From the NCBI RefSeq assembly GCF_965638725.1, contig NC_134950.1:106848802-106912801 (forward strand): a stretch of 64,000 nucleotides of DNA, in the 5' to 3' direction. Source of the DNA: Aptenodytes patagonicus. Lineage: Eukaryota > Chordata > Aves > Sphenisciformes > Spheniscidae. The translations under genes and the position numbers were made by a program. Of the stretch, positions 1,073 to 64,000 are shown piece after piece. The number at the start of each line of letters is the position of its first letter. Position 1 is the first letter of the stretch. The notes below the pieces were generated by a model. The model did not search any database and was not told the origin of the DNA. It saw only the letters and a program-made list of their open reading frames with translations.

Positions 1073-1470
1073 TGATCTGAACTATATGATACTAATTGTT
1101 ACATAATATTATATGCCATACTAATGTTATTACAATAAGAATCACCCAGATTAATGAAGAATGAACTTCAATGAAACCGAGCAAAGCACAGTGATGATGG
1201 AACCAGAACTGACTTCAACATGAAACAATCCAACACCACATACCATCCCCATCTTTCCTGCCCTGAAAGATTATTATGACAGATGGAGCCCAAAGTCATG
1301 GGCTAAATGAACTCAATGTCCATTTTAGAGGGATGGCCCACAGACTAAGGGAATGATATCTGTGTGTATATGTATCAAGAAACAGGAAAAGGGGTGGTGA
1401 TTAATGGAAACGTATTGGAAAGTGGGGGACCTAGGCATGATGTAGATGGTACAGAATAAGGGGTGGATAC
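1073..1470 (+). mobile_element. Retroviral 3' internal region between pol remnant and LTR
   Basis: About 400 bases separate the end of the integrase remnant from the LTR. No env-like frame is visible. The purine-rich run AATAAGGGGTGGATAC ends directly before the LTR start at 1471 and is in the position of a polypurine tract. The short spacer is what an env-less element would show. Confidence 0.6.
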
Positions 1471-2006: not shown

Positions 2007-3705
2007 CAGTCACCTCCCATGTATGTAAACTTTCATGCTACAAATTTTATGTTTAAGACAAGGGGGTAAGTATCAAATAATACATTCCAAAATGGACTCA
2101 ACAAAGACAAAGCATTTGAATCGTGCTGCACAAAATGGTTAAGTTACAGAGCACGAAAATCAGTAGAAAAATAGTAGACAGCCCCTTCAGTCAGTTTCCT
2201 GGCCTATATCAAAGGGTCATTCAGAAAATAATGCTACCAGCCTGATGTGAGGTAACTAAGACAGCTCCTTGTAGAACAATTTGAGGGGCGCCAGTCTTGC
2301 TTTAGACTTGTTCTAGACCTCTCACCACAAAGACTCTGAATATTCTGATTATCTGAGTAGAAAGAGATCATCCAGATGAGGCAAGATCAGAATATCTTAC
2401 AAAAACCACAGAAAACCCTACACAATAATTAGAACCAATATAACAGAAATGGGATGAAATTTGACAGTAAAAAGCTCAAGGCCCTTCATGAACAGCTAAC
2501 AGGAATTCACATGATAAACTGGGAACTTTAAACCAATGAAGTTTGGTTTGAAGAAAGAATTGGACAGATTATTCCAAATACCCTCTCAATGCAGCTACTA
2601 AACCTGCCAATTAAATTTGTTTATATACAGGAATGGGTATCTTTCTCTTACTTACCCATAAGTTTTAACACAATTTTTGAGACTGAGTGCTATACTTTTG
2701 TTTATAATACCATGTACAGTTTTGCTTACCTGTATTCAAAGAGATAAACTTATGCTGGAAGGGCTGCAAGAATAATTATACGAATTGAGAGAATATCTTA
2801 TGCAAAGAGACTACAAGACTTTTCCTTGTTTGGCCTAACAATAGGAAAGCTGAAAGGGGATTTGGTTGCACTCTATAAATATATCAGGGAGGAAGAAGTG
2901 CAATTTAAACTACAAGTTTTGTTAGTACAATCACAGATAAATATAAACTTAATCATAACCAGGTTTAGTGCTTGAATAGCCCCAAAGTGGGTAACGAAGA
3001 CAAGAAAAGGGAGCAGGTATGATGTAAGGACACAATTTTGATATAAAAAATTAATTTAATTTAATATAAAAATTGTGTATACGTGTATATATGCTTTACT
3101 GGTATAAAATTTTTTATGTATATAAATTTATATAAATACACACACACAAAACTGTACAACATACTATCCAAAGGTACTGGAAAAATATTTTCCAAGCTTG
3201 AATTTAGCACAAACAGCTCTTTGTTATTACCTTATGAACAGAGTAAGTAAGCAGTTTTTGCTGGATTCACAAAGCCATATATCATAATAAGTATCTCAGA
3301 TGCTTGGCTAAGAAACAAGAACTGGCAGGAATAAAGAACAGTACTAACATCTTGTTCTTCTTTTTAAATTCCCCAAAACTTGGAAACACACAAGATCCAG
3401 AAACTGGGTAAAATACCTTCACCCCTCCCATTTCCTAACATACTTATCACTTCTTGACCAAATCCTGACCTCAGATTTGTATCTCTATTTCTCTTCAACT
3501 TCAGCAGAACCTGTTTTCCACTATGAAAGAGGACTACAGCTTTAAACCTTTAAGTTCTCATTTAAATAACAATAATATTACATCTCATGATTCACACATA
3601 GTATTCACACAGAAAATCATTTGCTTATAACCCTAATCTTCCTATGTCATTGTCTAAAGGCATGATTTTAACTCTGAGGGATAAACCAAATTTAAAACAA
3701 CTTAC
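2007..3705. other. RECK intron 2 sequence, apart from the CR1 fragment
   Basis: Apart from the CR1-like fragment at 2735-3010, this stretch contains only AT-rich DNA. An (A/T)-rich run with a short CA repeat lies at about 3035-3150. No exon of RECK or of another gene was recognised. RECK exon 3 must lie beyond the left edge if intron 2 spans this region and the retroviral insertion. Confidence 0.5.
2735..3010 (+). repeat. Old, degraded CR1-like LINE fragment
   Basis: With gaps and stops, the plus strand translates to a CR1 ORF2 C-terminal pattern. The best piece is a 'LFGLT..KLKGDLVALYKYI' type segment at about 2825-2885, matching the [17 protein letters not shown] pattern of younger CR1 copies such as 28407-29050. 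It is heavily diverged and probably ancient. Confidence 0.6.
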
Positions 3706-3764
3706 CTGTTCACAGACATCACGGCACATTAAGTTGTCCTTTGCATGGTAACAACAAGACAAGC
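3706..3764 (-). CDS. RECK: RECK exon 2
   Basis: This is a 59-nt exon with an acceptor ending CCATAG and a donor CAG|GTAAGT. It encodes CCYHAKDNLMCRDVCEQ after two junction residues. That closely matches the start of the first cysteine-knot repeat of RECK (human CCNHSKDNQMCRDVCEQ, recalled from memory). It starts with two bases completing a Gly codon begun in exon 1 (G|GC) and ends on a codon boundary. It therefore joins exon 1 at 7520-7598 in frame. The reading frame seen to the left of 3706 is intron. Confidence 0.88.
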
Positions 3765-6700
3765 CTATGGAAAAGCAGGGGGAGGGAGAAAGATATTTAA
3801 AAGACTTGAAGCACTTAACTATCACTTCTGAACAGAAGCAACCACTTGGGGGCCTATCAGGACGATTTGTCTGGTCCACAGATGACTCTCAGAAATTTTT
3901 CCTTCCCAGAAGGCAAAAAAGATGAGAAATTTTTGTTCCGAAGTTGACGCAGATCTGTTCATCGAGTCTCACAGAATTACTGCTGAACACTCACTGCCAC
4001 CAAAAGGAGATCTCACTCCCCTTCCTTCTGCTTTTAGCCACATTTCTGCTGCTTAACTTGCACTAACTTGGCACCTGCCAAATACCTTCATAAGGCAATT
4101 CAATTTATTAACCCAGGAGAAATAAAAAAAAAGACTAGAATAATAAAATGTGAACAAAAATCCCACCAAAAAACTCCATAGAGACTATATGCCTTTGTAA
4201 ATTGAATAGTCTCACAGAATCTGAAAAGTGCAAGAACCAGTTAGAACAGGTGGAAAAAGAAATCAGAGCAGGAACCCCTTTTCACACAGAGGTGAACACA
4301 GCTGCTCATTGAACTCTGGTTTCTTAAAAACTTGGAACAGAGCTATAAGCTGTTCCACTAGTGATGGATGATTAAGAGTGGTTTTGCAAGACTAGATGTA
4401 AGTCATAAAGCAAACACAGATATGAACACATCAACAGGAAAACAAATGAGACTGAAGCACTGAGAAGTCATGAAACACCAAGATTTAAAGCATCCTTTTT
4501 AACATTATACTTTGTTGTGCTTTGTCCCCCTACCATCCAAATATTTCCTTCATTCGGTGTTAAGCTCGGCCAATATAAAATGAATCGCACAACTCCTTGA
4601 TATTCATTTTCATCCTCACTGCCTGGTGTTTGGAACAGTGTATTAGAAAACAGACAGAGATTTCCTTCAAAGCTTTTACTTCCACGCACATCTTCACACA
4701 CAGGATCATTTAATGATTACAGATTTCTGCTCAACTGTATCTGAACTACATATCACACCGATACAACATAGAAGCAATACTGTACAATGATACCACACAG
4801 ATAAAGTTGTATTTCACAAGACCTAGTTACTAAATAGATTTTGACCGAACCAATAAGAGGGATCTTGGGCATGAATTCCTTGATAATTTCACAGCTTACA
4901 AGTGTTTTCATCTGAAAGCTTACAGCTGTTACAAGAAGATAGCCAATTTAAAAAAAAAAACCAAAAGAATCCACCACCACCAAAACCAAAATTCTCCAAT
5001 ATTGAAATGACATTAAAAAAGAAAAGAAAATTTCAGCCTGAAAATGTTGAGGAACTGGGGGAGGGCGGGGAGTGGAAATCACTGAAAAGGTTTTCTGAAA
5101 CAGTCACAATTTAAAACGGCTACTACAGGATTGAGCTATATTTTAATGCAGAAATCTATCATTCCTGAAGAGGAAAGACGTGAAACCAAAGTAGGACTTG
5201 TAACTGGTGAATGTTTTCATTAATAATTAGAAATAACACAGCAAAATGCCTGTAATAAATTAGGACAGCATCAAAATCCTGCTTACAATACGATGAAATG
5301 AAAGAATGAAATTGTACAATTGATTTTAATGTTTTTTGCCAATTTTCTACCATCGCAGAAAAGGACTGAGATATGACACAAATGGCGTAAAAATCTTTCC
5401 GATTTGAGGGCTACACATGGGATCCTGCAGGTTTTCCTGCACTATGTTCAGTAAGCCGATCTGTGCCAAGAATCAACTTCATCATTAGCAGGCTCCACCA
5501 TGTTCAAACTTCAGTTATTATTTCACTTAACTGAAAAGCTTTGCTTTACACTTTATTAGTCCTGTTATAAAGCCATGGTATTAGAAATATATAACAATAA
5601 AAACCATTAACTTTGAAGAACAGACAGTTTTTCTTAAGGCAAGAGTTGCACTTATTTTCAGAAACGTTTCTAAATTTCAGTGCCCATGCAATCAGTCTGC
5701 AAGCAAATTAACACAGCGCTGGAGAAAACATTCAGGTTCACAATGAAAAGATATCCAGCAAATTAATTGTCAAAATCCAACCAAACGTACTTAAACATAG
5801 GCTTTACTTACAAACAGAAATACTGGCTACTCAATCATGTTTTTGTTGTTTTGTTTCACCGTGAGTCCTAGAAATTTTTCATTATATAAATTTTTATTGC
5901 GAGTAACTGCTACATTTAAGAGACCCAAGAATTCACAGTTCCCAACCTATAAAGAAAATTTACATTGGCTTAGGTGACAATGCATATGTTTAACTGCGTA
6001 TGTCACTATGATTTGAGTTCATTAATATCTTAGGCAACATTTTATTAAACGCTCCTTCACATAGATTATTGAATACTCTGTGGTCTTTTATCCATTAGTT
6101 TTCAGTGGCTGTCAACCGTCCTATGAGGGTTAACACACATCCAGGATAGTTCTCCTTCTCAATCACTTCCACTGCTGAGTTTCAAGTCTTATCAATTATA
6201 CCAAAGAGTGTTACAATGAAATAACAATATACTAAACTTTATGGTCATTTAATTCCTTTTATACAAAATCGTAATCAATTGATGGTATCTTGAATTAGCA
6301 GCGAATTAAACTGGCCCAGAGTGATCTTTAGTGCTTAAGTCAGAAATAGAAGGTATTAACAATATCCATTCCAAACACAATTCCTCAGTTCTCTTTCCAG
6401 TTAACCTCTTCTGAAATGTCTTATGACATCTCTTTCAGTCAGTCCCTTACCTTCTCATTTCCACTTTTTCTAGTTTTACTAAAAAATTTCCAAGTTTCAT
6501 TTCAAAATTTTATTCACGTCCAACTATGAAGTATCTACACTTCCTTCTTTGATAATACCTGCTATCTCAGCAATATGAGTAGGTTTACCAAGGGAAAGTT
6601 GGGCTAGAGTATGTCGTATTTCATTCCACTAGCTTTTTACAGCCAACTTTAATGCGGGAAACTATCTTATCACTACCCTTCTCTCTATTAAACATCTTGC

Positions 6701-14100: not shown

Positions 14101-15780
14101 GGAAGTTATTAGAGAGCTCTGATGTCTTTGCTAGGAAAGGAAAAGCCACACGCGTCTGAGAAGAACGGAGAGAGGGAGTCACGGTTTTTGGCGAGAACAA
14201 GGAGTAGTGCACTGGGGCAAGGCAGCGGGGCTAGGTAGAGCGAGTGCTGCCCGCAGGCTCCTCGCTTGCTGTGAGCTGGCTGAGGTTATCCTGCGGCCAA
14301 GGGCCATGCACAGCCCAGCCCAGCCCGCACCTGCTCAGGCACACTGCGGTGTGGGTCACTGGGTCCTCCATGTGCAGCAGTCCTCTCCTCACCATCACTA
14401 CACAGGGACACGAGGATCAAATGAAACTTCTTCTGTTAGGCAGCTTTAAATAATATACACTACAGCAAAATAACGTGTTAAGTTTGAGATCGTATACAAT
14501 AGGTCTGAATTCAGATCCTAAAGAATAATTTTAAAGCTCCCCCACCATATATTCAAAAATTCATACCTAAATTCTTACTGTCTTTGATAAATAAGACTGG
14601 AAAAAAAAACCACCTTACTTTCCCCTTTAATGCTCATATTTACTTTTCTCGGGTAGTGAAACTAAACCAGACCTTAAAAATCACTAAGCACCTGATCTCT
14701 CTCATAACTGATACCCAAATTATATGTATATGTACACAAAGCACAGCAAGATCCAAGTAAAATTTAGTGACCTAAATCAAGACTGAAGATAGATACATAA
14801 AAATAAAATTGAAATTGGAAAAAATACATTGACTACTTGGAAGCATGTAAACATCGTATACACTTCATGCTTCAGCTTGCTGGGTTCCTTCGGCACCTGC
14901 TTCTTCCTGAATCCTCAGGTGTCCTGGTGGATTGCCATCCTCCAAATCTCAGCTCCTCCAGCGGAACAGAGGCAGGATGTGGGTATCGACATCTAAGACA
15001 AAACCTACGAGCCCCTCACCTTTCTGGGTTGCCTACACTCTTCTCGGGGAAAGCCTGAGAATAAATAAACTTTTAAAAATGTAATGAAGTCCTACGCATA
15101 GTGTCTTAAAAGGAGAAAATGAAGAAGTAGCTTGGTTTAAAAATGTTCTTACTAGTGCCCAATAGGTAAGTCAAGTAATACTTCAGTAATGTCACAAATT
15201 AAATAAGTTATGTCCTTTATACGTACCTATATACCTTACATGCACTACTAACTAATTATGTTTTAACTCAGTAAATAGCAAATAAGGAAGACACAATAAT
15301 GAGATGAAAGCTGGGGAAGGGGGAACTGTCGGTGTACTTCATCAAGCTGCATTTTATTATACATCATGCGCGTTTAGAGGTGCAAAAATATTTTCAAAAA
15401 CAGAACCAAAATTTTATCTTTAAAATACTTACGGGGTCTGAAAGTCATCTGGTGTGGTTTTTGCTGTTCTTTACATCCTAACTTTGAAGATATGAGAAAA
15501 ATAGTGGAACACAATCCTAAAATGGTACTTTAAATCCGTCTGCAATTCCTAAAGAAAAAGCTATTTTTAAATTAGTTTACTTATTTATTCAACAACTATG
15601 ACTACACCTATCCAGCAATAGTAAGAACAACAAATTGCTAAGCCAACAACTGAAATTAAATTAACATCATAACTATAGCGTTAGTAACAGAAGGGAAGTC
15701 TGCAAAATGCCAATATGGTCATTTTGCTGAAAGCTGAGGAAAACATTAAAAAAAATTAAAAAATCTCATGAGAACAACAC
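8141..15780. other. Intergenic region between RECK and the ACVR1-like relic
   Basis: This AT-rich DNA contains no confidently recognised gene. The two missing C-terminal exons of the ACVR1-like relic should lie here or in 15.8-17.9 kb, but I could not find them. A minus-strand stretch at about 9190-9510 has two overlapping open frames without known similarity. A GC-rich patch lies at about 14160-14420. A segment at about 14870-15070 ends in AATAAATAAA and may be an old retro-element tail. None of these supports a gene call. Confidence 0.5.
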
Positions 15781-15782: not shown

Positions 15783-17110
15783 CAGGGATCTGCAGAATGC
15801 GGCAGCCCAACAGCGGCAAGGCTGCTGCAGCTCCATGCCCCGGGGTCCCACCAGTCGCAGGGCTGAACACCTCTTCCCAGCGGGCACGGGCAGGGGCACA
15901 CGGAACAACACAGCAAGAAGCACTCGCCACGCACACAAACGGCACCGGCAGCCTCACCCTGCTCCCCTCTGTGGCTGATCAGGACGGAGGTCTGTTAGTA
16001 GAAAACCTCTATGCGTATGTACAGTGGAGATCCCTCCAGCAGCTGGGCTCAGGCAGTCTATCCAGCAGCTGCCCCTGGATCCTCACACCTGCCCAGCCAC
16101 CAGCACCTGGGCGTGCGAGTTCCCACGGCCTGCAGCCCCACTTCAGCTGCTGGTAGAGGACCTCCCACCCCATACACACACCAGCGCACAGGCACACGTG
16201 CTCTAGATCCCTTCAGTAACTGGGCTTAGACACGCAGAGCATCCAGTATCTGGTCCTGCATACTCTTTCTCCCCAGTTGCCTCTTGCACAGATACACACA
16301 TACCAGCGGGTCTCCCAGTCAACCCCACACCTGCTCTCTCCAGCAGCTGGCCTGGACCTGCTGGGGTTGGCTCTGGCCGCCAGGTCCTCCAGGAGTCCCA
16401 CCTGCAGAAAGGCACGCACATACCTGGCTCTCAGGCCGCTTGACCTACTTGCCAACAAACCCAGCCTGACCGTCACTAGTGATCATGCACTCACGTAGGG
16501 CACCCTCCCTTGCTCCAGCTGCTGCAGCACAGACACGTGTGCCCTGTCACCTGTGGCCCAGCTCCACCTGCTGACACTTGGACCTTGGTGCACCCCATGA
16601 AAAGGAGTTTCATGAGACAACAGGACAGACTGTGCTGCTACAGCACAGGGTGCAGCCTTAATGTAATGACCAAAGCATAATGACCTTAAGTGTAATGACC
16701 GGCCACCTGTTTATACACAACCAGCCCCCTTTATCCCCTTTTCCCTCTCTTTTCCCATGCTTGTTCCTCCCCAAACCACCTCGATCCCTCCCTTTCCCCA
16801 CCTTTGGTTCCTCCCCTAAACACGCCATGGCAACTCTAGCACAACCCCAACATGCTCTTCAGCTGCATCCCATGCCATGTGCCGTAGCCCTGCTGGCACT
16901 GACCCTACCTCAGTCTGCAAGGTGATCCAGAGAGCCTCTCCAGCAGGTTCATTGTCTGGATCTCACACCTGGACAGTGAGGCTGATGGCTCTCCCAGGAC
17001 AGCTTTGGGACGGGCTGGGACAGGGTGTCCATTCCTCTTACTGGTCTACAGGGGGTCGCCCACCTGCCGCTGTGCCTCTGTGCTCCTTTGTGTTTGTGGG
17101 GATGAGCTGT
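15783..17110 (-). mobile_element. GC-rich LTR-like dispersed repeat, copy A
   Basis: This is a GC-rich island with repeated CAGCAGCTGG-like and CACACC motifs and a pyrimidine-rich block near 16730-16820. It aligns by eye with 33529-34320. Shared landmarks include GGAGGTCTGTTAGT (15990 and 33735), GAGCTGGGCTCAG-like text soon after, and the block with TTTTCCCATGCT plus GTTCCTCCCC at the far end. A related copy in the opposite orientation lies at about 44270-45740. The three copies and the retroviral look of copy C suggest LTRs of an avian endogenous retrovirus, but no family name could be assigned. The borders are approximate. Confidence 0.6.
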
Positions 17111-17976: not shown

Positions 17977-18174
17977 CATTACTGAATGTTCTTCTTGTTA
18001 TTGCCCATAGAACAAGAACAAATGCCCACATGTCAATATGCTTACGGGCATCAAAGCCATCAACCAAAATCGAGTCATCAGGAAGTTCTAGTGCCATGTA
18101 CCATTTTGTGCCAAGTCTAGGACTGTTTCCAACATCTGATCAGTTCTTTGTCCAGGAATGCGTTACTGCAAGGC
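17977..18174 (-). pseudogene. ACVR1-like relic: activation segment to F-helix exon
   Basis: This 198-nt exon has an intact acceptor (TTTTAG) and donor (AATG|GTAAGT). It reads GLAVTHSWTKN, stop, then [18 protein letters not shown] and on to [13 protein letters not shown] and TRRTFSNG. Each piece lines up with ACVR1 ([30 protein letters not shown] and so on, from memory) without gaps. There is one in-frame TGA at the position of a Gln codon. The APE motif is ALE, and the conserved Gly of WAFGLVLW is Val. It joins the preceding exon in phase 1 (G|GC), as in a real gene. This is the best-preserved evidence for the relic. Confidence 0.93.
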
Positions 18175-19709
18175 CTAAAATTAAGAAAAAAAAATCTTTC
18201 AAAATGAGAGTTTAATTCATATAGATTTGAAGTTAGCATTATCACATTTAATAAATCAGTATTATCTATTTAATACCAAATCAGGTACATAGAAAGGCTG
18301 AAGTGCTACAGCAAAGCAGAAATGCTCTAACAGGAAGTGGCAGATTATTTCATCAATGCTCATTAAACCCTGAAATTACTGGAAGTTGCTAGCTAGCTGA
18401 CTATATCCCTTAGTGAGAAAAAGTGAAAAAGGTAGAGTATTGCCTTCAAATTAATTCTAGGTGACTTGCTCATTACAGGAGTTTAAAGAAACAGTTGCAG
18501 CAAAGTTGGGACTTGGTGTTATTTTCACTGTGCAGGATTGGGAATGTACCAAAAGGTTGGGATAGTGGGTAGTGATTCTTTCGGAGAAGGACAAAGGAAA
18601 GAGATAAGAAATTATTTTGGTTTTTGTTTTGATTGGGAAAAAAACACCCTGGAATGAATCATCCAACATTATTTTTGAGTACCACCATGACAGCAAGCAA
18701 GAGTCAACATGCATTTTGCCATGAACAAGTTGTAGCAAATGTATCTTATTTCCCTTCGCAACAACTGACACAAGGAAAATTCAGGTTGGACATCAAAAAA
18801 AGCTTTCTAAAGATAAGGCTAGTGAAGTAATGAAATGTATGGCCTAGGCAAGTTGTAGAATATCCACCAGAAAGAGTCCGGCAAATCTTTCAGAAATAGT
18901 CTAGGCAAATGTTTGCCAAGCGCATGGATATGGTTTATCTGGCTTCGGAGGAGTGTGAAAGGTTTGATGATTTCCAGAATCTTTTTCAGGCCTATTTTTC
19001 TCTGATTCTTCACACAGACCTCCAGGCCCCAGAATGGGGCCTTCACTAGCGGGGCAGAGACTACTGTAAAGGGCTTTTGGCTGTAAAGGGCAGTTCTGAA
19101 GGTGCTCATAAACAAACCTGAAGCAGCCTAAAGCACCCTTGTTCTCGCTGGACCTTTGTAAGTGACTGCCTGTAAGCGTGCTCTGGAAGAGAAACCTAGC
19201 AAAGGAAGCTGTTGAACTTTTTCAGCCTTTCCGGGGATTAAAAACCAAAAGTTACATTTTCAACCTCAGAATAAGACCTAATCACCACAAAAGACAGCAA
19301 CAAACAAACCTGTTTCATCTCTAGGAAACATTCTGCATTTGAGAACATTTTCTAAATGTCGAGACTCATCTCCCACATTCAAAATCTCCCGGATTTCATC
19401 TCTTTCTAGCACGAAGTTCAAACTCCTTGTTGCATGCTGTTCCATCCATTTTCTGTGTGACACATTCCTGTATTTTATCAATTGCGAAGTATTAGGATTA
19501 ATAGTGTAGGACTTCTGACCAGATTGATATATTATTCCTGAGACTAAATATCATATAGTGTTTTGTATGCAACACAAGTTGTCCAATAAATGCTACATTT
19601 TCCTCATTCAAACACATGGCACATTTACTAACTACAAGGAGAACAGGTTATTTTTGATCCAGAATTTGTTATAAAAGAGATTATTTTTCAAACAATGAAA
19701 ATTCCTTAC
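18175..19709 (-). other. Intron of the ACVR1-like relic with a possible old CR1 fragment
   Basis: This lies between two recognised relic exons. Near 18760-19000 the plus strand gives a CR1 ORF2-like phrase (GKFRLDIKKSF followed, after frame changes, by a VVEYPPE piece). It resembles the '[17 protein letters not shown]' end of younger CR1 copies. The minus-strand open frames at 18457-18771, 18819-19115 and 19278-19481 match no receptor exon. Confidence 0.5.
18760..19000 (+). repeat. Possible ancient CR1 LINE remnant
   Basis: Similarity is only at the level of a short translated phrase (TQGKFRLDIKKSFLKIRLVK) matching the C-terminal region of CR1 ORF2, then a frameshifted continuation. There is no 3' terminal CR1 octamer repeat. 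Call it tentative. Confidence 0.45.
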
Positions 19710-19971
19710 CGATATCAGCAATGCAGCAGCACAATTCTTAACGAAGATATTTTTACTTTTTAATGCCTACATGCTGTTGCTGGTTTACCTTCTGACCCAA
19801 ATATTTTAATATGTAGATATACAAGACCACTTGCAACAAAAACTATAAAATTTAAACAACCATAAATTATCAACCGTATGTCACTGCAGGTAGTTACAGT
19901 GACTCATTTTTGTGGTAGCAAGGCTGAATTTCTACCGGAATTTCGTGATGTCATGTCTGATGCAATGAACC
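19710..19971 (-). pseudogene. ACVR1-like relic: hinge, C-lobe and catalytic-loop exon
   Basis: This 262-nt exon has acceptor TTTTAG and donor ATCG|GTAAGG. It opens GFIASDMTSR, identical to the ALK1/ALK2 signature, then decays. There is an HKNE..SL remnant of the HYHEMGSLYDYL segment with TAA for the Tyr, then several stops. The frame recovers as VASGLVYLHIKIFGSEGKPA (ACVR1 [20 protein letters not shown]). The catalytic HRD reads CRH and is followed by a one-base deletion, then KSKNIFVKN and, after another shift, CCIADIG. The exon continues through GTQGKPA without an intron. That matches the ALK1/ALK2 gene structure and not TGFBR1, which has an intron there. Confidence 0.92.
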
Positions 19972-20736
19972 CTAAAACAAAAAGGAAATTCTTCTCATTA
20001 ACTTGTGTTAGTATGCTTGCGTTTGAAAATAATTTGATATGGCAGGAGTGGATCAGTAAATCTATCAGTAGAGCTACTAATTAACTCCAGTGTTTTTTTT
20101 TTTTAAAGAAAAAAAAATCAAAACACAATCCTTGTTTCTTATTAAACCATCTTTTTTGTGTCAGTGACTATGAACTCACTGATCAGTAAGAATTGTATTC
20201 TATTAAAAGAGGTCAATTCCTCCTAGGTCTTATTCTAAAGACTACTTTTCTGTTTCACCAACTTGCTAAGTAAAATCGGTTTTGATTAGGGTTTAAGTAA
20301 ATGAATAAATGATGAAAATTATGATTTTAGACAGATTCGTAATGGACACTTTTCTCCAGTCCCATAACATATAAGAGAGCCTGAATGTTTGTTGCTTTAG
20401 TTTGAAAAAAGGAAATTAAAAGCCTCTGTATCACATAGATCATGTTCTTTTCTAACCTCTCTTTAAGAAACAACAAACAAAACCAGAGAGATAACTATCT
20501 GCAAAATTACAGGGTTGTAAGAAAAAAATATTTCAAAGCTGTATAATTCAGATACTTCAAAAGTTCTTTTCTCTATAAAAAATTTCAAGTAAATTATAGA
20601 CTTGGACAAAAATTAAGTACAACATAGGTCCTTTCCCGCCCCCCCCAAAAGGATCCTAAAAGGACATGACTAAGATTTTCTCATTAAGAGATAAATATAT
20701 GAAACATTAGTCCTTTCTACTTGGAAATAATGATAC

Positions 20737-20950
20737 CAGTATACACTCATGTTGAAGTAGTATGGAGCTAAAAATGGCACCTTCTTTAAATCATGATTTT
20801 TTTTATCCCTTGATGAAAAGATTCTCACAACAACATTCTCTCCTTGCCACTGAGCTTTCCAGACTTCTCCATTGTGGCCTTTTCTTAAAAAACAAAGATA
20901 TCAAATTGTTGATAATGATACATATTTCTTTTCAGAGCTGGGCACAGTTT
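20737..20950 (-). pseudogene. ACVR1-like relic: GS end and kinase N-lobe exon
   Basis: The recognisable core is [20 protein letters not shown] then IFSSRD (ACVR1 [26 protein letters not shown]). The glycine loop has lost its second Gly and the ATP-binding Lys is Arg. A run of A residues just after IFSSRD adds two bases and shifts the frame. The continuing frame reads S, stop, [18 protein letters not shown], aligning with [20 protein letters not shown], with the Trp codon now TGA. It ends at CTG|GTATCA, the same site where ALK1/ALK2 genes split before GFIASD. The 5' border near LCPALKR (the ancestral LPFLVQR) is approximate, and a stop plus a shift occur before the glycine loop. Confidence 0.88.
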
Positions 20951-22229
20951 AAGTAGATGTGTATTTATGACTTTGGTTGTTTTTCTCTGCAACTTTTTAG
21001 CATTTATAATAAGATTAAAGATGGGAGGTAGTCTCAGGATTTTAAAGTGGTGCAGTGAGTCTTCTGGATAGTAGACCATCTACCCGCAACATTGCAATAG
21101 GTTTTTGTAAACAAATTCACTGCCGTTCAGTTCTTAAGAAATGATGTATCTCTGATGCCTAAAGCAAAAATGTTCAGTTTTGGGGAAGAATAAAGATAGT
21201 AGACTTCCAATCTAAGTTAAAAAATTTATTGCTATCTTGTGTCTTTGATCATCAGTAGGGAAAGTAGAGCTGACAACTGTTCTTTCTCATTCTCCCTCTT
21301 CCAACAGTGCTGATATTTCCCAAAATCTTTAATTCCATTGCAGCAGAACAATAATTAATTGAGGTTCCAGCAAATATATTCTTATTCTCATAGGTCCAAA
21401 CAGGAAGCTAAAAGAGTTGACTGGTTCCCTAACCAGACTCAAAAGAATGAAAAAATGACATGCATTATTTGTTGATGAGAAAAACAAACAAGCCAAAAGC
21501 CCAACAGAAAAACTCTTTCATTGGTATATGGAAAGCACAGTATCACCCAGACTAGCTCCACCTTCTATCTCAATGAACTAATTACAACTCAATCACGCAA
21601 TGCATTGCAATTTTAGTAATCCCCTCCAGTGTATCTACAGCGATACACTATTGAATACTTTAAAATTAGAAGATGACTTGAGAAACAGAGATGGTTTCTA
21701 ACACTAAATTACCATTTTACTTCACCTGTGGTATAGATGCATAAGAATATGGAAGACAGGAGAATAATTATCATTATAATTTTACAATTCATTGTCTTCA
21801 GATGTGAAATAGCATGGTTGTTTTGGTACCATACATAGGCAGACCACTAACAACAGCTGAGTAACTATCAAATCCAACCGTCCTTCCAATGAAGAAAATG
21901 TGTATCAAATTATTTAAAGGTAGAATAATCTTATGTAACAAGACTTGTAAAGTTTTTAAATTCAGATGTGAATGCTTCACAAGTATAATGTAAGTTTTGA
22001 CAAAGTGTTTTGATTTGGTGCTTTTACATTTTTGCTGTAAGACATGATTAACTCTTGACCTATGCACATCTACTAGCATTTTGCAGTAAAAATAGCAGTG
22101 CAGAGCCACTTCCTGAGGTGCAAGAATAATTCAGCAATTCCTAAACATGGGGGAGATTTTTTTCAGTTAAAACAAAGAAATTATTGCAATAAAGAGTAGC
22201 TTTTATAAAGAGTTTCAGAATTCTTGACT
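20951..22229 (-). other. Intron of the ACVR1-like relic
   Basis: AT-rich sequence. Open frames at 20951-21079 and 21798-22109 (minus) give no receptor similarity. No repeat family was recognised. Confidence 0.45.
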
Positions 22230-22507
22230 GGCATCACTTAAAATTGCCCCCTCCTTGCCCCTCAGTATTAAGAAAATCTTATTTTCCAAATCAGCTAGAT
22301 TTTGCAATGAGTATTAAATGCAATATTTAGAAAAGAAATGTTTTATTTTACATGTTCAGCATCAATGTGCACATATAACTGATGCATTTGAGTTTGACCC
22401 ATTTTGTGACAGGCTGTGATAGCCAAAAATGACAGAATTAGCAGCACTACAATAGGGCTTATGACAAATAAGAAAAGTATCAGTACTGGATTGTATTGCA
22501 GCAGATA
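22230..22507 (-). pseudogene. ACVR1-like relic: transmembrane and GS exon (probable)
   Basis: After an acceptor (TTTTTTTCAG at 22508) the frame gives a strong membrane segment, VLILFLFVISPIVVLLILSF, followed by a short polar tail and a TAA stop at about 22345. Past the stop an NLADLE piece resembles the TLADLL that precedes the GS box in ALK2, but no SGSGSG run remains. Position and order, between the ligand-binding exon and the kinase exon, fit the family. The identity of the segment itself is inferred from hydrophobicity and order. The 3' border was not determined. Confidence 0.65.
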
Positions 22508-23434
22508 CTGAAAAAAAGAACGCATATGACCAGTTTGCATACCTGCTTTTACTTCACCTAACTCAAATTTTCTGCCAGGTCCATAAAGGTATTACGGTTT
22601 GTAGAAGCTTTAGAACTTATTGCAAAGAAATTAATTGCCTCTGATTAATTGCACTTTAACATGAAGTAGCCACATAAAACAGAGGCAGACATCATTACAT
22701 AGCAGCCTGTCTTGTTCCTTCCAGGTACCAAACCAATCTACCTACGGGACTGTCAAGCTCATGCCTTTGAAACTAAGGAAACAGATAAAACAGAACAGAG
22801 GCAACAAATACATGCTGTCTGAACACGGCAGTCAAAGAAGAAAATGTAAATTGTTCCAATTTTTTACTAAGTACATTGACAGAAAAGAAAATTACAGGTA
22901 TCACAGTGAGGAGAATAAAGGCATTTAAAAAAAAAAGAAAAGAAAGGAAAAAGGTTTTTAGCCACAACCTGATTTCTTGGTCAGTTAAGCAAGTCCTCCT
23001 TCTCCATAAATTTTTTTTTTTAATATATCAGTAAATAAGACACATACAAAACTGAGTGTGGGAAATGCCAAACTTCAAGCCTGTATAGTGCAATGAAGAA
23101 CTAGACTGAGACTAATAAAAATACCTTACAAGAATTGAGTGCTTGTGATCCCCTGCACAGAATAGTTCTGTGTCTTTGTAGATAAGGTTTTTTGGCAAGG
23201 AAGTATCCCATTTTGATCTAAATAGCACAGTGAGTTGCAGCAAAACCAGAATCCAAATACCAAAAAAATTCCAACAGCATAAAAGCAGTAAATCTTATAG
23301 TAACCATGTAAAAATGCTTACCATATCCAGATAGATTTGTAATTACACAACAAACATATGAAAAGTAGTTTCATATTTACTAATCTGTTTATTAAATACA
23401 TTAACCAGAATAACAGAAATTAAAACACTCGTAC
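22508..23434 (-). other. Intron of the ACVR1-like relic
   Basis: AT-rich, with poly-A and poly-T runs near 22930 and 23015. No recognisable element. A hydrophobic open frame at 22773-22967 (minus) is Phe/Leu-rich from T-rich DNA and is not called. Confidence 0.45.
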
Positions 23435-23693
23435 CTGGGAAGTAATGGCTTTTCACTGATCTTCCAGTTATGGAGATTTCCATAACAACATGCAACAACC
23501 TGACTTATTGAGGGTGCAGTTCTGCATGTCGTTTCTCCATATTCCAGAAGGATAAAACATCTTTTCTGGAAGACATATGTATCGCCATTCAGGATCACCA
23601 AAGCAAAATACTGCTGAACCAAGCAGCAATTCTGACAACCACATGAACTCACCTCACAAATGCCTTCAAACAGGATGGATTTAACAGCTTCAG
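23435..23693 (-). pseudogene. ACVR1-like relic: ligand-binding (three-finger) domain exon, still open
   Basis: This 259-nt exon runs from acceptor TTCCACAG to donor CCCAG|GTACGA and has no stop in its frame. It contains GICEVSSCGCQNCCLVQQYF, then DTYVFQKRCFILLEYGETTC, RTAPSISQVVACC and a short end. Aligned with the ACVR1 ectodomain (CVCEGLSC..., HVYQKGCFQVYEQGKMTCK, PPSPGQAVECC), it keeps the toxin-fold spacing. However, it lacks three expected Cys: the first of CVC, the one in QQC, and the last after CC. It starts in phase 1, like the corresponding receptor exon, but ends in phase 2, which does not join the transmembrane exon in frame. Confidence 0.88.
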
Positions 23694-23977
23694 CTGTGGA
23701 AAAAATGCACATCAAGCTTTTATAAGCAAAAATATCTACCTTTATACCAGCAGGAAATATCTACCTATATACCAGCAGAGTTTGCACAGGCTGATTAAAT
23801 TACAAATGGGTTTTATCTTGCATATTCTACTAAAAACTTAGTCCTTACTAGCCTTACAAAATGAAAACTGAATTAAAACACTATAGATATTTGTGAGTGC
23901 AGGAGCACAGAGGTCTTCAACCTAGCTCCTCACTGCTCTCTTTTTGTGCTCATGCTTCAAAAAGGGTGCCACAAGTA

Positions 23978-24510
23978 GAACCATAGAATCATAGAATATC
24001 TCGAGTTGGAAGGGACCCGTAAGGACCATCTTCCTGCTCCTCGCAGGACTACCTAAAACTAAACCATTTGACTAAGAGCGTTGTCCAGATGCTCCTTGAA
24101 CTCTGACAGGCTTGGTGCCATGACCACTTCCCCAGGTAGCCTGTTCCAGTGGGCGACCACCCTCCCAGTGAAGAACCTTTTCCTACTGTCCAACCTGAAA
24201 TTGCCCTGATGCAGCTTCATTCCATTTCCTCGTGTCCTGTCGCTGGTCACCAGAGAGAGGAGATCAGCACCTCCACCTCCGCTGCCCCCCTTGAGGAAGG
24301 TGTAGACTGCCATGAGGTCAGCCCTCAGCCTTCTCTTCTCCAGGCTGAACAAACCAAGTGACCTCAGCCCCTCCTCTTGTCTTGCCCTCGAGAACTTTCA
24401 CCATCTTGGTCGCCCTCCTCTGGACACACTTGAATAGTTTGATGTCTTTCTTGTACCGAGTATATAAGTATTCACATTCAACATCAGCAGCTCTTCCCTG
24501 CACGAGAGCA
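23978..24510 (-). mobile_element. CR1 LINE, 5'-truncated, minus orientation
   Basis: The left end carries the tandem ATAGAATCATAGAATAT typical of a CR1 3' terminus read in reverse, then the GAGTTGGAAGGGACC 3'-UTR text. The reverse strand encodes the CR1 ORF2 C-terminus in two frames ([20 protein letters not shown], ...[19 protein letters not shown]..., then [14 protein letters not shown], and upstream [20 protein letters not shown]). Frame breaks show it is inactive. It lies upstream of the ACVR1-like relic's ligand-binding exon. Confidence 0.92.
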
Positions 24511-27500
24511 ACTTAAAATAACAGCATCGGTCTAACCACAAGTAAGATGAAAGTAATTTTCTGATCTGTAGATTTGCTCTCCCCATAAGATGGGCTTACT
24601 GTTTCGGACAGAAGTCTTAATTCAAAAGGTCATTCTGTTCAGTTCATCTGTGGAAGTGCATTTCATTTTCTCTTAAAGGAAAACAGAACAAAACCAAAGC
24701 TGCTTCCTGCTGCCTTGATTCTGACCAGTCACGTTTGTCCAAGACTGATCTTCAAAGCAGAGAATATTTAAAAATTACTATTAAAATGAAGCTGAAAGAG
24801 CCCCCAAAGTTAATCTTTGTTAAAAAAAGATATTCCACAGCCTACTATTTTTATTTCAACTTAAGGAGTAAACCCGTAGAGCAGCATACAGTCAAACGTA
24901 GATAATATACAGAGCAGCAGATCAGAGGAGATCAGCATTATAGGTCGATTTCTTGTTGTAATGAACAGGAATTGACATTGTCAAGCAAGCATACAGAATA
25001 ATGACAACATTGGGCTCATTTTAGGCATTTGCTCAAACAGGAAAAAAAAAAAGGTGCCTATGAAGCAAACAAAACAATAACTAAAACCAAAACTGATAAA
25101 CTTCTATTGCAATTACAAAAAAGCCAGTTGGTTACTTTCAAGTATCTATGTATATAATCTCATACATACACACATTCACATCGTCCCACTCTAAGGACAG
25201 GTTTCAGTCCAAACACAACTGTTAATGTCATTTTAGACACTCCGGGGCATGCCAGCTGTCACTGCAGCAAGACGCATGTCTCTGTCGCTTTTGTATCATA
25301 TCAGCCTGCTTAAGTAAATGTGCGGGATATCCCAGGACATTATTATGGCAGTTGAAGCCTTTGTTTAGGCAACTGAACCTACTCTAGATGTATAACTTCG
25401 GTACTTAAATTCTGTAAGTGGACTCAAACTATATGAAACGGTGGAAAATGAATGTCTGAAAATGGAAGGAGAATCCAGACGCTCTCCTGTCACAGTGAAA
25501 CACCAGAGTTAGCTTTCGAAGATCGCTTCAGTAACGAACTTGAATATATTAAAATATCCTGAATGTCCATGTTGTTTACAAAATGGTGACTTTGAAGACA
25601 AGAGCAAAAATGTGCAAGAGGTATCAGGCATGCCTGCAGCTGAATCTAGGGGACTATGAGTAAAACACAACAGTTTCTGAAAAATAAAGAAACTTCCATT
25701 TCTCAATGCATCATCATTCCTGGACTCTTGGAACAAGACGGGAGAGTACTGTGCTGTAAACCTAGGGAAACTCTAGTAGTTGTAGAGCTTCTGGCAGAAA
25801 AAGCTCCCCCTTCCCAAGAGATCCAAGTGTAGCTTTGCTAACTGCAGCATGACATGACTGCACATGCATAAAGACACACCTGAATGGAAAACCTACTTTT
25901 TCCAGTCAGGAACATACAACTGTTACGGTGGGCAGTCTGGAAACATCAGCAATGCTGGAATTTTCCCGACTGCAGCGAATCTCTGTCCTACCTACAGAAA
26001 TGATCTTCACATTCCCTGATACGCTATTTGGCTACAATTGCACTGTGCATTTGTAACACATGAATTAACTATGGTCCTTTTCCAAGTAACTGCAGGGTGA
26101 ATCACAGCATGCAGTCAGGGACTAAAACATGGACTATGTCTGCTAGCAGAAAGGTTGGAGCTGCTCGGGAGTACTTCCTACAAGATAAAGCTATCAGTTG
26201 CTTTTCTGTGAAAGCAAGGGAAGAAGCCTCATCGCAGACTAGGATGCCAAAGCTCACTGTTTTTTCTGGCTCCCTTAAGCCATCAGCAAGATGGCCTTTG
26301 CAGAATGGAATAATCAGGGATAACTTATCCCCTACATTCACAGCAGAAACATAATCTACTACATCAGTATTTTCCAGCTTGCTTTATGTCCTTTCGCTAT
26401 ACTGGAGATGGCTGATATATAAAAAGAATCATGGTTTTCCTCCTACATAAGGAGCATGTTTTCCTTCATTGGTTATCGTTTCACTCCTCTTTTCTCTACT
26501 GAAGAGCTATGCTTTCTCCGTATCTCGGTGTTCTAGCTGCCTAGGTTACAACAGTCCATGTTTTGGGATCTTTTCGTTGTTGTTGTTCAAAGTCCATATG
26601 AAAACAAACTGATTCTGGGATGATTTTCTGTATGAAAGAACAAAAATAACAGTACAGACAATGCAATACTTGCGTTACCTTCAATATCGCCTTCAAAATA
26701 GGATGCGTCAGCAAAATTCTGTCTAGCACCTCCTCATATGCACAGATGGCATGAGAACTGCTAGAGATACAGCTTGGTTTCTTTCTTTCTCACTTTCTTA
26801 GCCTTGATTTTTCATCCTTGATTTAACTTATCATTTTCACATCTTTTGAATTTTTATTGCATAAGATCATGTTTGTAGTCTTGCACAGCCATTTCTTTAT
26901 TGAGAGCTTCAAAAATACCTGCATTATGTTCCTTGCTATGATGCTTTTCTTTCTGTAATTATTTTTAGCTTGTCAGGTGACTCCCAAGCCTTCCTCAAGG
27001 AAAATGACTTCATTTCTCAGTGTGTGTGTCGCTGTCTCAGCGTTGTTTTGAACAGGGTATTGGAGATACTTGCCTGGGTAAAAAGCCATCGGTCCATACT
27101 AAATTGTGCCTAAGCAACACCAAGTGATGGCCAGCTATCTCACCTCCTTTCCTCTCCGTGATCATCTCTGATTTTAAATACCCTTTCCTTGCTTTTATGG
27201 AAACTTTCCAATGCATTTCTTTGAGTGGCATGAACAACTTTGTTTGAAAATAAGCTTTGATTTCTTCCATCAATTCTTCAAAGTATTTCCTTTGTGAAAA
27301 CTGGAGGAGCCCAAGTCCCTTCAGCCTGGCCACCTCTTTCAGGCCCACAATCACATAGACTGCTAGGACTTGTAGCTCCTACTTCCCGAGTGTCAGAATT
27401 CATGTAGGGAGACAGTTTGAAAGAGGCTGCCAGGGAACCAGAAAAAGCACACAAGTCTGTATTTGAGGGACTGATTCATAACCTCATCAGTCACTCATAT

Positions 27501-28406
27501 GTAAAACATCTGTAATCATTTATAAAGTTACTGTATTCCAGCTTAGACATGGTAAACAGATCATCTCAAAAGATGACAGCTTCCTGAACTTTGGCCTATA
27601 TAAATCACCTCCAACAGTGCTTAAGACTATAAAGGAAAAACAAACACACCAAAACACACGAAAACCCCAGTGACTAGACCACTGCCTGAGCACTTATGTC
27701 TTAGGAAAGGAATGAGTAACATAGAGCTAGTCTTGGAAGCTCCTTAAACACTACTGCTGCTTCAGAAGTGCTTGTCTGTCTATGCCTTGGGCAGACCAGC
27801 TAGTTTTTGCAATACCGCTTAGATAAGGCATGTGGATGCAACTAAAACCCTCAGCAGTATAGAAAAAAAAATAATCTCCAAATTTCTTCTAAATCTCCTG
27901 GCCTTCTGATCAAATACGGAATCTGCAGGAGCTCAGTTGCCATGTGTAAGTATTACTGTAACCCAGGACTGCATCAACCTCTAAATGAGAAACTCAAGCT
28001 AATTTAGATCTATAAAGATTACAGTATCTCATAGGTTTTACATTTACCTCAGGGTGCAGCTGCCTTCTTAATCATGTCTAACAGATGGACACTGAAGGAA
28101 ACTCATGTTGATATATATTGAAGCTAACAAGCTAGTACTTCAAAGTGCCATCACTGGTCATTTGATTTGATTCTTTTTCTATCTTTTTGGTTTTAAAGAC
28201 TGTTGTAAACAAAGTATTCTTTAAAGCATAGATTTTAAGAATTCCAACCAGAACGGCTTTCTATCTTTTTACAGTTAAAATAGAGATGACATGATAATGG
28301 TCCTTTCACTCAAGATAACACTGAACGATCTCTAGTCTTGTAACCCTCCTTCCTTTTTCTCCCAAGCAATTTCATTAAAGAAATTATATCTAGCTAGTGT
28401 TTAGAT
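24511..28406. other. Spacer between two CR1 copies, no recognised gene
   Basis: If the signal-peptide exon at 31.1 kb belongs to the ACVR1-like relic, this is part of its first intron. Two minus-strand open frames (25509-25736 and 27037-27354) were examined. The second reads like a real peptide (RLKGLGLLQFSQRKYFEELM), but I know no homologue and see no start context or splice sites. No RNA gene was seen. Confidence 0.45.
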
Positions 28407-29050
28407 ATAGAATCATAGAATCATTAAGGTTGGAAAAGACCTCTAAGATCATCAAGTCCAACCATCAATCCAACACCACCATGCCCACTAAACCCTGTCC
28501 CTAAGCGCCTCATCTACATGTCTTTTAAATACTTCCAGGGATGGGGACTCAACCACTTCCCTGGGCAGCCTGGTCCAATGTTTCACCACTCTTTCAGTAA
28601 AGACATTTTTCCTCACGTCCAATCTGAACCTCCCCTGGCGCAACTTGAGGCCATCTCCTCTTGTCCTATCGCTAGTTACTTGGGAGAAGAGACTGACACC
28701 CATCTCGCTACAACCTCCTTTCAGGTAGCTGTAGAGAGCGATGAGGTCTCCCCTCAGCCTCCTTTTCTGCAGGCTAAACAACCCCAGTTCCCTCAGCTGC
28801 TCCTCATCAGACTTGTTCTCCAGACCCCTCACCAGCCTCGTTGCCCTTCTCTGGACACGCTCCAGCACCTCGACGTCCTTCTTGTAGTGAGGGGCCCAAA
28901 ACTGAACACAGTATTCGAGGTGCGGCCTCACCAGTGCCGAGTACAGGGGCACAATCACTTCCCTGCTCCTGCTGGCCACACTATTTCTGATACAGGCCAG
29001 GATGCCATTGGCCTTCTTGGCCACCTGGGCACACTGCCGGCTCATGTTCA
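28407..29050 (-). mobile_element. CR1 LINE, 5'-truncated, relatively young
   Basis: The reversed 3' terminus ATAGAATCATAGAATCATTAAGG is at the left end. From about 29045 down to 28488 the minus strand holds an uninterrupted 185-codon frame of the reverse transcriptase C-terminal region ([77 protein letters not shown]). No stop or shift is seen, so this copy is younger than the one at 23978-24510. It is truncated at its 5' end and cannot move by itself. Confidence 0.95.
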
Positions 29051-31115
29051 GCCGGCATATTTCAGTTCATATTTCCCAGGATGATATCATAAAGCATTAC
29101 AGAAGTCTACTTCTGTAAGTCACTCATTGAAATCTTGCAATTGCAACTTACTTCAACCAGAAAATTAATACAGAAGAAATAAAGCATTAAAGTTTGCTCT
29201 ATTTTGCTGTATACTTTTGAACTGCTTTGTGCATACAAATCTAGGAGAGATTTTGAACATTAAGGATACTGGTGTTACAGTATATACCAACAGAGATATT
29301 TCATTCTGCAAACTTCAAGCACACAATACATACGTTTCATCCTGTAAATTTCAAGCAGTAAGGGGCCAAAGCAAAATCAATCACCTGTGAAGCGTTCTGT
29401 GTGAAGGGGAGCACAAGTAAGGGAGCTCATGTCATGAATGGTTTGTGAAAATTCTTCTCCCCGCATCCAGGCAGATGGAAAGCCCTCTAGCCTGACAGGC
29501 ATGCCCATTTACAAGCAGCCAAGCAACCCTGCTTCATTGCTTTATCACTATCACCAAGGCAGTATAGCGTATTTTTAGAGGGCTGTCATACACGAGGACA
29601 GATTTTGTCCTGAAACGGATGCAGGGCAGTGTCGATTATTGACTACATTACCTGTTCTTAACCAAACATCCAACAGCGCAAGCAGCAGTTAGATTCATGG
29701 CAGCTGGAAAGTGCAGCCTGACGTTTCCTTTGGGTTGAAAAGGCCTGGAGAAAAATAGCTGGGACTATTTCAGCTGGGAGAATTTACTTTTAAAAATTAC
29801 ATTCTATTTTTAAAAAAAGCATTGTTTTTTATGCCAAAAGGCCAAAGTCCTTTTATAATGCAACTGCTGATGCCAATCAAAACCAATCAACAATAAAAGT
29901 AGGACTGCAGGGAGAGGGAGACCTACTACTGGGATAAAATTTCTCACTAAAGGTTGCTTACGAAGACAGTCTCCAAGAGCCAGGCTGGAAGAAAAGCCAG
30001 ACAGTTGCTCAAGTAATCGCAGAAAAAGATTACTTTTTCAAGTGAACTGAAACAAACTAACTGCCCCCCAGCTTTCCAAGTGGATTTCTCAGACGGAGCA
30101 GGAAACGCAACTGGTGCCGTCTCTTCTGTGGGGAGACAGGGAGTGAGCTGAGCATGAGTGACTCAACACACATGCTAGCAAGCAGAATTTTGCATTAGCT
30201 AAAAAAGAGGGGGGAAGCAAGCAAGCAAGATGAGAGCTGGAATTATCTTTCTCCATACTGTAACACTAAATACACACAAAATGCAACACAAAAATATGAA
30301 TGTAATTATTCCCAGCAGAGAAGATCCACTGGATGAAAAAAGAGCCAAGCTGTCATTCACCTTCTAAAAATGAAAGTGACGTGACATGAAGAACAGTAGT
30401 ACTTAAACATTTATCAGTAGAACCACATATTAAAGAAGTTTCTTCAACTTGAGCCAGGTTTCAAATGGTCTAAAGAAACCGCCTGTTTTTAATTTAAAAT
30501 AAGTGTATTGAATATACTGCCTTCAGCATAAATTCTTTTTAAAACAATTTGAAAGTATTTTCAGCTGCAGAATGCAACATCTTTGGAAGAGGAAGCAACA
30601 AAACATACATCTGGCTACAGGAAACTGGAAAAATGGATGCAGCAACACATCATTACAAAGGAAGAAATCATTAAGAGCCTAAACTGTCATTTTTCTTTTG
30701 CGTTAGAACTCAAAGGCTAGCAGAATGATGAACAAAGACAGGTTACTTACCTGGAACTTTTCTTCAAAATGTGTTACCTGTTTATACAGTTACACTGAGA
30801 TTATCTGTAAGCAAGCACTCAGGTAAGTTTTACCGTAAGAGTTTCCTCAGTATTTTACTTCAAGCCTCCTGCATGCAACCGCGGCAACAATAAAGGGAGC
30901 AAAGCACCCACCTCCCCTTCTGGAGAATCCTCCTCACCAAAGAACCAGAAGATTTGGACTTTAAAAGAGAGGGCTGTGAGCATGCTGTACATACTGACAA
31001 CACAGCCTGAAGAAGTTAAAAAAGAAATGTTGTAAATTTTTTTTTCCCCGCAATATTCCCTCCTTCTTCAAGTTCAATACTATTCTGAGTGTTTTAAGAA
31101 CTGTGGAGTGCTTAC
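29051..31115. other. Spacer upstream of the ligand-binding exon, no recognised gene
   Basis: AT-rich sequence containing no repeat family or exon that I recognise. Confidence 0.4.
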
Positions 31116-31176
31116 CTGCGGTACCAGCGACAATGTGCACAGCAACCCTGAAGAGGCTGTAAGCCACTGCGATCAC
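31116..31176 (-). pseudogene. Candidate signal-peptide exon of the ACVR1-like relic
   Basis: A short minus-strand frame reads (V)IAVAYSLFRVAVHIVAGTA followed by a single G and the donor GCAG|GTAAGC. The hydrophobic stretch ending in small residues looks like a signal peptide. The phase-1 end matches the phase-1 start of the ligand-binding exon at 23693. The first in-frame codon is GTG rather than ATG, so the start may have been lost. After the junction the peptide EAVKS resembles DPVKPS of ACVRL1 at the same exon border. This is inference from position, phase and hydrophobicity; 7.4 kb separates it from the next exon. Confidence 0.35.
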
Positions 31177-40840: not shown

Positions 40841-63993
<23,153 letters not shown>

Positions 63994-64000
63994 CTGGAGT

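What the first reader, a model, noticed from the sequence alone, without database searches (positions are those of the whole stretch)
17977..23693. A decayed ACVR1/ALK2-class receptor gene sits between TGFBR1 and RECK
Five exons in the right order and on one strand match the ALK1/ALK2 class, including the diagnostic GFIASDMTSR and DVGN.PR.GTK. The gene structure also fits that class: an intron before GFIASD and none at GTQGKPA. Nothing in the neighbouring TGFBR1 explains these. I know of no mammalian ALK2-type gene at TGFBR1, so this would be a lost fourth ALK1/2-class locus or a lineage-specific duplicate of ACVR1. Seen directly: the motifs, splice sites and lesions. Inferred: its origin and loss.
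Basis: partly seen in the sequence, partly recalled or inferred. Interest (0 to 1): 0.88.

Follow-up and report, generated by a model that had tools for sequence, protein, structure and literature searches.

The report
Dead ACVR1L receptor gene in bird
Next to the growth-factor receptor gene TGFBR1, this apparently avian genome carries the wreck of a third, very old BMP receptor gene (ACVR1L) that alligator, coelacanth, sharks and ray-finned fishes still have intact, so it records the loss of a developmental receptor on the line to this bird.

Summary
On the minus strand, between an intact TGFBR1 and a probable RECK 5' end, lie seven decayed exons (and probably an eighth) of an ALK1/ALK2-class type I receptor. 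All 12 splice boundaries that could be placed keep AG or GT. Stops, frameshifts, loss of 3 of 10 extracellular cysteines and damage to the VAIK lysine, HRD and APE motifs show that it is dead. It is not a copy of avian ACVR1: it pairs with an intact alligator protein (99/93) inside an ACVR1L clade (100/98) with cartilaginous fishes, coelacanth and gar; union with avian ACVR1 is rejected (p-AU 6e-5). ACVR1L is in print for shark, coelacanth, gar and teleosts; I found no tetrapod report in the library searched. Its place beside TGFBR1 fits an ohnologue pair (compare ACVR1-ACVR1C and ACVRL1-ACVR1B, recalled), but gene order differs and a crude linkage check in fishes was inconclusive. Whether other birds share the relic, and whether a second copy exists in this genome, could not be tested.

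The parts
30557..30631 (-). probable signal-peptide exon (FPVSCSQMYVLLLPLPKMLHSAAEN; alligator LPVARSQIHILLFLILKILYSGAED)
   Evidence: score 54, 0 of 100 shuffles as good, best on the other strand 30; tBLASTn E 0.24; no canonical donor at its end
23435..23693 (-). ligand-binding (extracellular) exon; open frame, 3 of 10 cysteines lost
   Evidence: 61% over 105 residues to alligator ACVR1L, E 5e-33 (the match runs on upstream to 23742); ccacag before, gtacga after
22352..22507 (-). transmembrane exon; one frameshift, 3' end not resolved
   Evidence: 58% over 50 residues, E 5e-11; 0 of 40 shuffles as good; tttcag before
22081..22140 (-). GS-box exon (ELLNYSCTSGSGSALLFLLQ); 3' end not resolved
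   Evidence: 14 of 20 identical; tBLASTn E 0.002; gtttag before; Pfam GS motif below cut-off
20737..20883 (-). kinase N-lobe exon (glycine loop and VAIK region); VAVK reads VVVR, one frameshift, one stop
   Evidence: 32 of 47 identical; AG and GT at both ends
19710..19971 (-). GFIASD-to-ADLG exon without a break at GTQGKPA; HRD destroyed, frameshifts, one stop
   Evidence: 61 of 87 identical; ttttag before, gtaagg after
17977..18174 (-). DVGN/APE exon; one stop, APE reads ALE
   Evidence: 43 of 67 identical, E 2e-20; ttttag before, gtaagt after
15433..15548 (-). penultimate coding exon (GIADGFKVPF*DCVP...); one stop, one frameshift
   Evidence: 0 of 40 shuffles as good with human and with alligator query; ctttag before, gtaagt after
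40844..64000 (-). neighbour: TGFBR1, seven exons without stops, from the transmembrane exon (cut by the window's edge) to the stop codon
   Evidence: tBLASTn 76-100% to human TGFBR1
3703..3771 (-). neighbour: probable RECK exon

Best explanation
The sequence is the pseudogene of ACVR1L, an old ALK1/ALK2-class BMP type I receptor gene distinct from ACVR1 and ACVRL1. Shown: ALK1/2-type exon plan with readable splice sites, lesions through most exons, and grouping with the intact alligator gene inside a clade that reaches back to cartilaginous fishes. As a receptor it cannot work: the catalytic lysine, HRD, APE and three structural cysteines are hit and the last exon is gone or unrecognisable. 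Inferred: the living gene made a SMAD1/5-activating BMP receptor like fish Acvr1l; on the bird line it came free of constraint long ago (about 0.2 substitutions per site of drift) and has decayed in place since, with no role now.
For: Best hit of the read-through relic is alligator P0001 (418 bits), then Latimeria 407 and 403 and Callorhinchus 394; single-domain bird and tortoise ACVR1 reach 350. Summed frameshift-aware scores: alligator 1197, Latimeria 1080, Callorhinchus 1062, best ACVR1 949, human ACVRL1 687, TGFBR1 560. Tree: relic with alligator 99/93, ACVR1L clade 100/98; AU tests reject union with three avian ACVR1 (6e-5), all ACVR1-side rows (0.0022) and human ACVRL1 (0.0020). Holds on an avian ACVR1 template (clade 100/97) and on ECD+TM alone (pair 100/99) and kinase alone (clade 99/98). 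Of 7 clade-separating sites 6 ACVR1L, 0 ACVR1, 1 other. GTEGK in 41 of 44 clade proteins, 0 of 139 others; relic GSEGK. Splice sites 12 of 12. Lesions.
Against: The relic's branch is long (0.86), and the pair with alligator is not starred on the avian template nor on the kinase alone. Leaving alligator out of the definition, 10 separating sites give 6 ACVR1L, 1 ACVR1, 3 other. The splice points were placed by eye where the homology ends, which favours finding AG and GT. That no second, working copy exists in this genome is untested (genome search did not complete). The clade rows are not named ACVR1L in the database; the name follows PMC5979292.
Confidence: 0.93

Rival explanations
1. A lineage-specific duplicate of avian ACVR1 that landed beside TGFBR1 and decayed.
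For: The relic is of the ACVR1 type, and all ACVR1 rows match it well (850-949).
Against: 51.0-51.7% identity to three bird ACVR1 against 65.7% to alligator ACVR1L; p-AU 6e-5; 0 of 7 separating sites in the ACVR1 state.
Confidence: 0.02
2. A decayed relative of ACVRL1 (ALK1).
For: Same class and intron plan (recalled); ACVRL1 is second among the other receptor types for the kinase.
Against: The extracellular exon matches ACVR1, not ACVRL1 (33 against 306 for alligator ACVR1L); p-AU 0.0020 (one human ACVRL1 row only, on a long branch).
Confidence: 0.01
3. The kinase is dead but the ligand-binding exon is still used, for instance as a secreted decoy or in a non-coding transcript.
For: That exon has no stop or frameshift and both its splice sites.
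Against: Three of its ten cysteines are lost; no stop where about 2 are expected is not unusual (P 0.13 at 0.2 substitutions per site). No expression data at hand.
Confidence: 0.04

Closest known systems
ACVR1L / Acvr1l (zebrafish alk8; PMC5979292, PMC7478894, passages)
   Same: Same clade by tree, same diagnostic residues, ALK1/2 type exon plan (alligator P0001, Latimeria P0003, Callorhinchus P0004, gar P0025).
   Different: Dead: stops, frameshifts, lost cysteines and catalytic motifs. In an archosaur beside TGFBR1; no tetrapod member in the papers I searched. Zebrafish Acvr1l itself was not among the named rows, so its place in the clade is taken from the papers.
ACVR1 (ALK2)
   Same: Same class, motifs and intron plan (human intron positions recalled).
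   Different: Separate clade with its own cartilaginous-fish members; 47-53% identity to the relic over the compared columns.
TGFBR1 (ALK5)
   Same: Neighbour on the same strand; same superfamily.
   Different: Different breaks between exons in the same window; 36% identity to the relic.

Membership tests
ACVR1L gene lineage | falls in the clade of intact ACVR1L proteins | tested here: met
   100/98, pair with alligator 99/93; clade in 3 of 3 further builds and in the 189-row quick tree, SH-aLRT 99
ACVR1L gene lineage | clade-separating residues | tested here: met
   6 of 7, 0 ACVR1 state; without alligator 6 of 10, 1 ACVR1 state
ACVR1L gene lineage | same genomic place as intact ACVR1L | tested here: inconclusive
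   contig lengths agree in 1 of 9 fish species; alligator locus not readable here
working type I receptor kinase | catalytic lysine, HRD, APE and ten ectodomain cysteines | tested here: not met
   VVVR, CR+frameshift, MALE, 3 of 10 cysteines lost
unprocessed (intron-bearing) pseudogene | introns and splice sites remain, with disabling lesions | tested here: met
   12 of 12 placed boundaries; 4 stops and several frameshifts
unitary pseudogene | no working copy elsewhere in the genome | not tested
   The genome search unanswered in 9 tries; no bird ACVR1L in the listed best 120
recent avian ACVR1 duplicate | groups with avian ACVR1 | tested here: not met
   p-AU 6e-5

The most novel reading that the evidence does not exclude
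TGFBR1 and ACVR1L are the third of three old tandem pairs left by the vertebrate genome duplications (ACVR1 with ACVR1C, ACVRL1 with ACVR1B, ACVR1L with TGFBR1). ACVR1L lived on in archosaurs, is still intact in alligator, died in the bird stem before living birds diverged, and was lost separately in mammals, lepidosaurs, turtles and frogs; all birds should carry the same wreck between TGFBR1 and RECK.
Probability: 0.5. Interest if true: 0.62.

Novelty: new member of a known kind. Interest (0 to 1): 0.52.

Why it matters
It adds archosaurs (intact in alligator, dead here) to a BMP receptor lineage that the papers I saw report only from fishes and coelacanth. It supports an origin of ACVR1L before the jawed-vertebrate lineages split, against the teleost-duplication origin stated in PMC13187141. 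It bears on the use of zebrafish acvr1l as a stand-in for human ACVR1 in fibrodysplasia ossificans progressiva work, since the two would be old paralogues. It gives a position-tagged receptor loss on the bird line and a testable link to the tandem pairs of type I receptors.

Tried and rejected
Single-piece Pfam scans were uninformative. Last coding exon: not found in 1-15432 (alligator query, 28 of 40 and 37 of 40 shuffles as good; an earlier best of 38 at 14197-14112 had no shuffle control). Rest of the GS exon (alligator residues 219-233): not found (5 of 40 shuffles as good; human query 25 of 40). With human ACVR1 the transmembrane exon (36 of 40 shuffles as good) and the signal exon (19 of 40, in 23700-25500) were not seen; with the alligator protein both appeared. 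Rfam: 0 matches in the window. Papers: ACVR1L with tetrapod (4 hold both, 3 listed), with birds (4, 3 listed), with alligator (1); of these I saw passages of PMC5979292, PMC13187141, PMC10516590 and PMC7916704 and none tells of a tetrapod ACVR1L. One search was useless (its 10 listed papers hold no acvr1l); I saw as listings only (25 of 40 papers listed). PMC4290089 on genes missing in birds has no ACVR, activin, TGFBR, RECK or ALK2 in its main text (an earlier whole-word find was ill-posed); its supplements were not seen. In some searches I labelled P0013 (Scleropages) ACVR1L; the trees put it with ACVR1, and I counted it there in the AU test.
Full report
Setting. The window carries CR1-like repeats (recalled consensus) and a TGFBR1 that is 99-100% identical over 391 residues to named bird and reptile TGFBR1; I take it as a bird, species unknown. 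TGFBR1 lies on the minus strand, seven exons without stops from 64000 to 40844, the first cut by the window's edge. The ligand-binding exon of the relic starts 17 kb beyond the TGFBR1 stop on the same strand. So TGFBR1, relic and probable RECK read in one direction.

Observation. Frameshift-aware scores summed over seven exons are 883 for human ACVR1, 687 ACVRL1, 560 TGFBR1, 557 ACVR1B, 547 BMPR1A. Against PDB chains the extracellular block hits ACVR1 only (2 of 2 at E up to 10); the kinase blocks rank ACVR1, ACVRL1, TGFBR1, BMPR1B first (34 sequences at E up to 0.001).

More exons. With the alligator protein the ligand-binding exon rises to 61% over 105 residues (E 5e-33) and the transmembrane exon appears (22501-22352, 58%, E 5e-11; 146 against a shuffle maximum of 44). 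The penultimate coding exon is at 15548-15433, GIADGFKVPF-stop-DCVP, between ctttag and gtaagt (59 against 48 in 40 shuffles; 61 against 45). On re-checking, a probable signal-peptide exon came up at 30631-30557, FPVSCSQMYVLLLPLPKMLHSAAEN (54 against 44 in 100 shuffles of 23694-40800; best on the other strand 30); it has no canonical donor. The last coding exon was not found.

Structure. Boundaries that could be placed: ligand-binding exon both sides, transmembrane acceptor, GS acceptor, N-lobe both, GFIASD both, DVGN both, penultimate both: 12 of 12 have AG or GT. They were placed by eye where homology ends, so the count flatters. Not placed: transmembrane and GS donors, the signal exon's donor, the last exon. 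The breaks before DLLDHSC, before KGRYGEV, before GFIASD and after ADLG do not occur in TGFBR1 of the same window, which breaks at SGSGS/GLPLL, ADNK/DNGT, GTQG/KPA and GTKR/YMAPE; the break before IVEDY/IHEDY is shared. The relic is thus an unprocessed gene of the ALK1/2 plan (that plan in human ACVR1 and ACVRL1 is recalled).

Lesions. Stops: N-lobe 1, GFIASD 1, DVGN 1, penultimate 1, others 0; frameshift steps: transmembrane 1, N-lobe 1, GFIASD 5, penultimate 1 (steps of the alignment, not proven events). VAVK reads VVVR, HRD reads CR and a frameshift, MAPE reads MALE; cysteines 54, 72 and 118 of the ten (alligator numbering) read G, Y, H. At 240 columns invariant in six intact ACVR1L proteins the relic keeps 163 (0.679), at 202 invariant also in five ACVR1 proteins 132 (0.653); a simple drift model gives about 0.19 and 0.20 substitutions per site. 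With a recalled avian neutral rate of 1.2 to 2.2 per site per billion years that is roughly 85 to 165 million years, an inference. Stops expected at 0.2: ligand-binding exon 2.0 (seen 0, P 0.13), rest 6.2 (seen 4), so no sign of kept use.

Which gene. The read-through relic against 5.8 billion proteins: 856 at E up to 1e-20 of 3350 candidates, 120 listed. First is Alligator 'activin receptor type-1' P0001 (418 bits; a cluster of 7 sequences), then Latimeria 407 and 403, Callorhinchus 394, Narcine 370, Scleropages P0007 365, Chiloscyllium 358. Of the ACVR1 side, two-domain proteins reach 372 (Heptranchias P0005) and single-domain penguin and tortoise ACVR1 350. The alligator protein as query lists no further tetrapod in the ACVR1L clade among the best 120 of 4507 scored; the tetrapod rows of both lists (tortoise, birds, snakes and lizards, frogs, caecilian, newt, mammals) stand on the ACVR1 side. 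P0012, an unnamed 429-residue piece, is a further ACVR1L of unknown species and could be a tetrapod. Capped lists are weak evidence of absence.

Trees. 35 rows, 392 columns, LG+C20+F+G4: relic with alligator 99/93; ACVR1L clade 100/98 with Callorhinchus, Narcine, Chiloscyllium, Latimeria, gar and P0012; Callorhinchus and Narcine also have ACVR1-side genes, so the split predates the jawed-vertebrate divergence on this tree. Human ACVRL1, on a long branch, is not placed (53/28). Forcing the relic with three avian ACVR1 costs 75.5 log units (p-AU 6e-5), with the ACVR1 side 44.5 (0.0022), with ACVRL1 33.0 (0.0020). On an avian ACVR1 template the clade stands (100/97; 64.8% to alligator, 53.1% to duck ACVR1) but the pair with alligator is not starred; ECD+TM alone gives the pair 100/99 and the clade 96/99; kinase alone the clade 99/98, sister unresolved. 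A quick 189-row tree gives a 45-row ACVR1L clade (44 proteins and the relic; SH-aLRT 99) that takes in single-domain teleost genes; relic with alligator 87. GTEGK marks 41 of 44 clade proteins and 0 of 139 others; the relic has GSEGKPA. Of 7 separating sites the relic is 6 ACVR1L, 0 ACVR1, 1 other; with alligator left out of the definition 10 sites give 6, 1, 3.

What is known. PMC5979292 (passages): ACVR1L, a copy of ALK2 from the second genome duplication, in shark, coelacanth, gar and teleosts. PMC13187141 (passages) calls medaka ACVR1 and ACVR1L products of the teleost duplication. The trees here side with the former. PMC7478894, PMC10501582 and PMC7916704 (passages) describe fish Acvr1l as a BMP receptor. 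No tetrapod ACVR1L was found in the passages seen from the searches; subscription papers are largely not held.

Place. Human ACVR1 with ACVR1C and ACVRL1 with ACVR1B are same-strand neighbours (recalled). A partner beside TGFBR1, the third ALK4/5/7 gene, is what the genome duplications predict. Against a simple reading, the ALK1/2-type gene is upstream in the two human pairs (recalled) and downstream here, and contig lengths agree in only 1 of 9 fish species, with gar among the 8 that differ.

Verdict. A real, old, dead ACVR1L gene: identification strong (0.93), history partly inferred.

Noticed in passing
window 23983-24450 and 18771-18805: CR1-like repeat (recalled consensus) just upstream of the ligand-binding exon, and an older inverted piece of the same repeat (35 nt, 77% complementary) in the intron before the DVGN exon.
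   Followed up: partly
window 7001-8500: CpG island (GC 0.55-0.82, CpG observed/expected 0.82-0.99), possibly the RECK promoter.
   Followed up: partly
window 16001-17000: GC-rich (0.55-0.60), CpG-poor stretch inside the relic's intron before the penultimate exon, rich in C over G; looks like an inserted repeat, not identified.
   Followed up: no
proteins P0067 (Phoxinus), P0071 (Cyprinus), P0072 (Carassius), P0178 (Myxocyprinus): Carp-like fishes have proteins on the ACVR1 side (GTQGKPA; 2, 1, 1 and 3 ligand-binding domains by a simple motif count), whereas PMC13187141 says ACVR1 was lost in all Cyprinoidei.
   Followed up: partly
protein P0005 (Heptranchias perlo, 599 aa): A shark protein on the ACVR1 side with two ligand-binding domains by motif count; the passages seen of PMC13187141 do not mention one in sharks.
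   Followed up: partly
protein P0012 (unnamed, 429 aa): An ACVR1L fragment on a 1558-base contig, 87% identical to alligator, that branches next to alligator plus relic (70/85) in the small tree; species unknown.
   Followed up: partly
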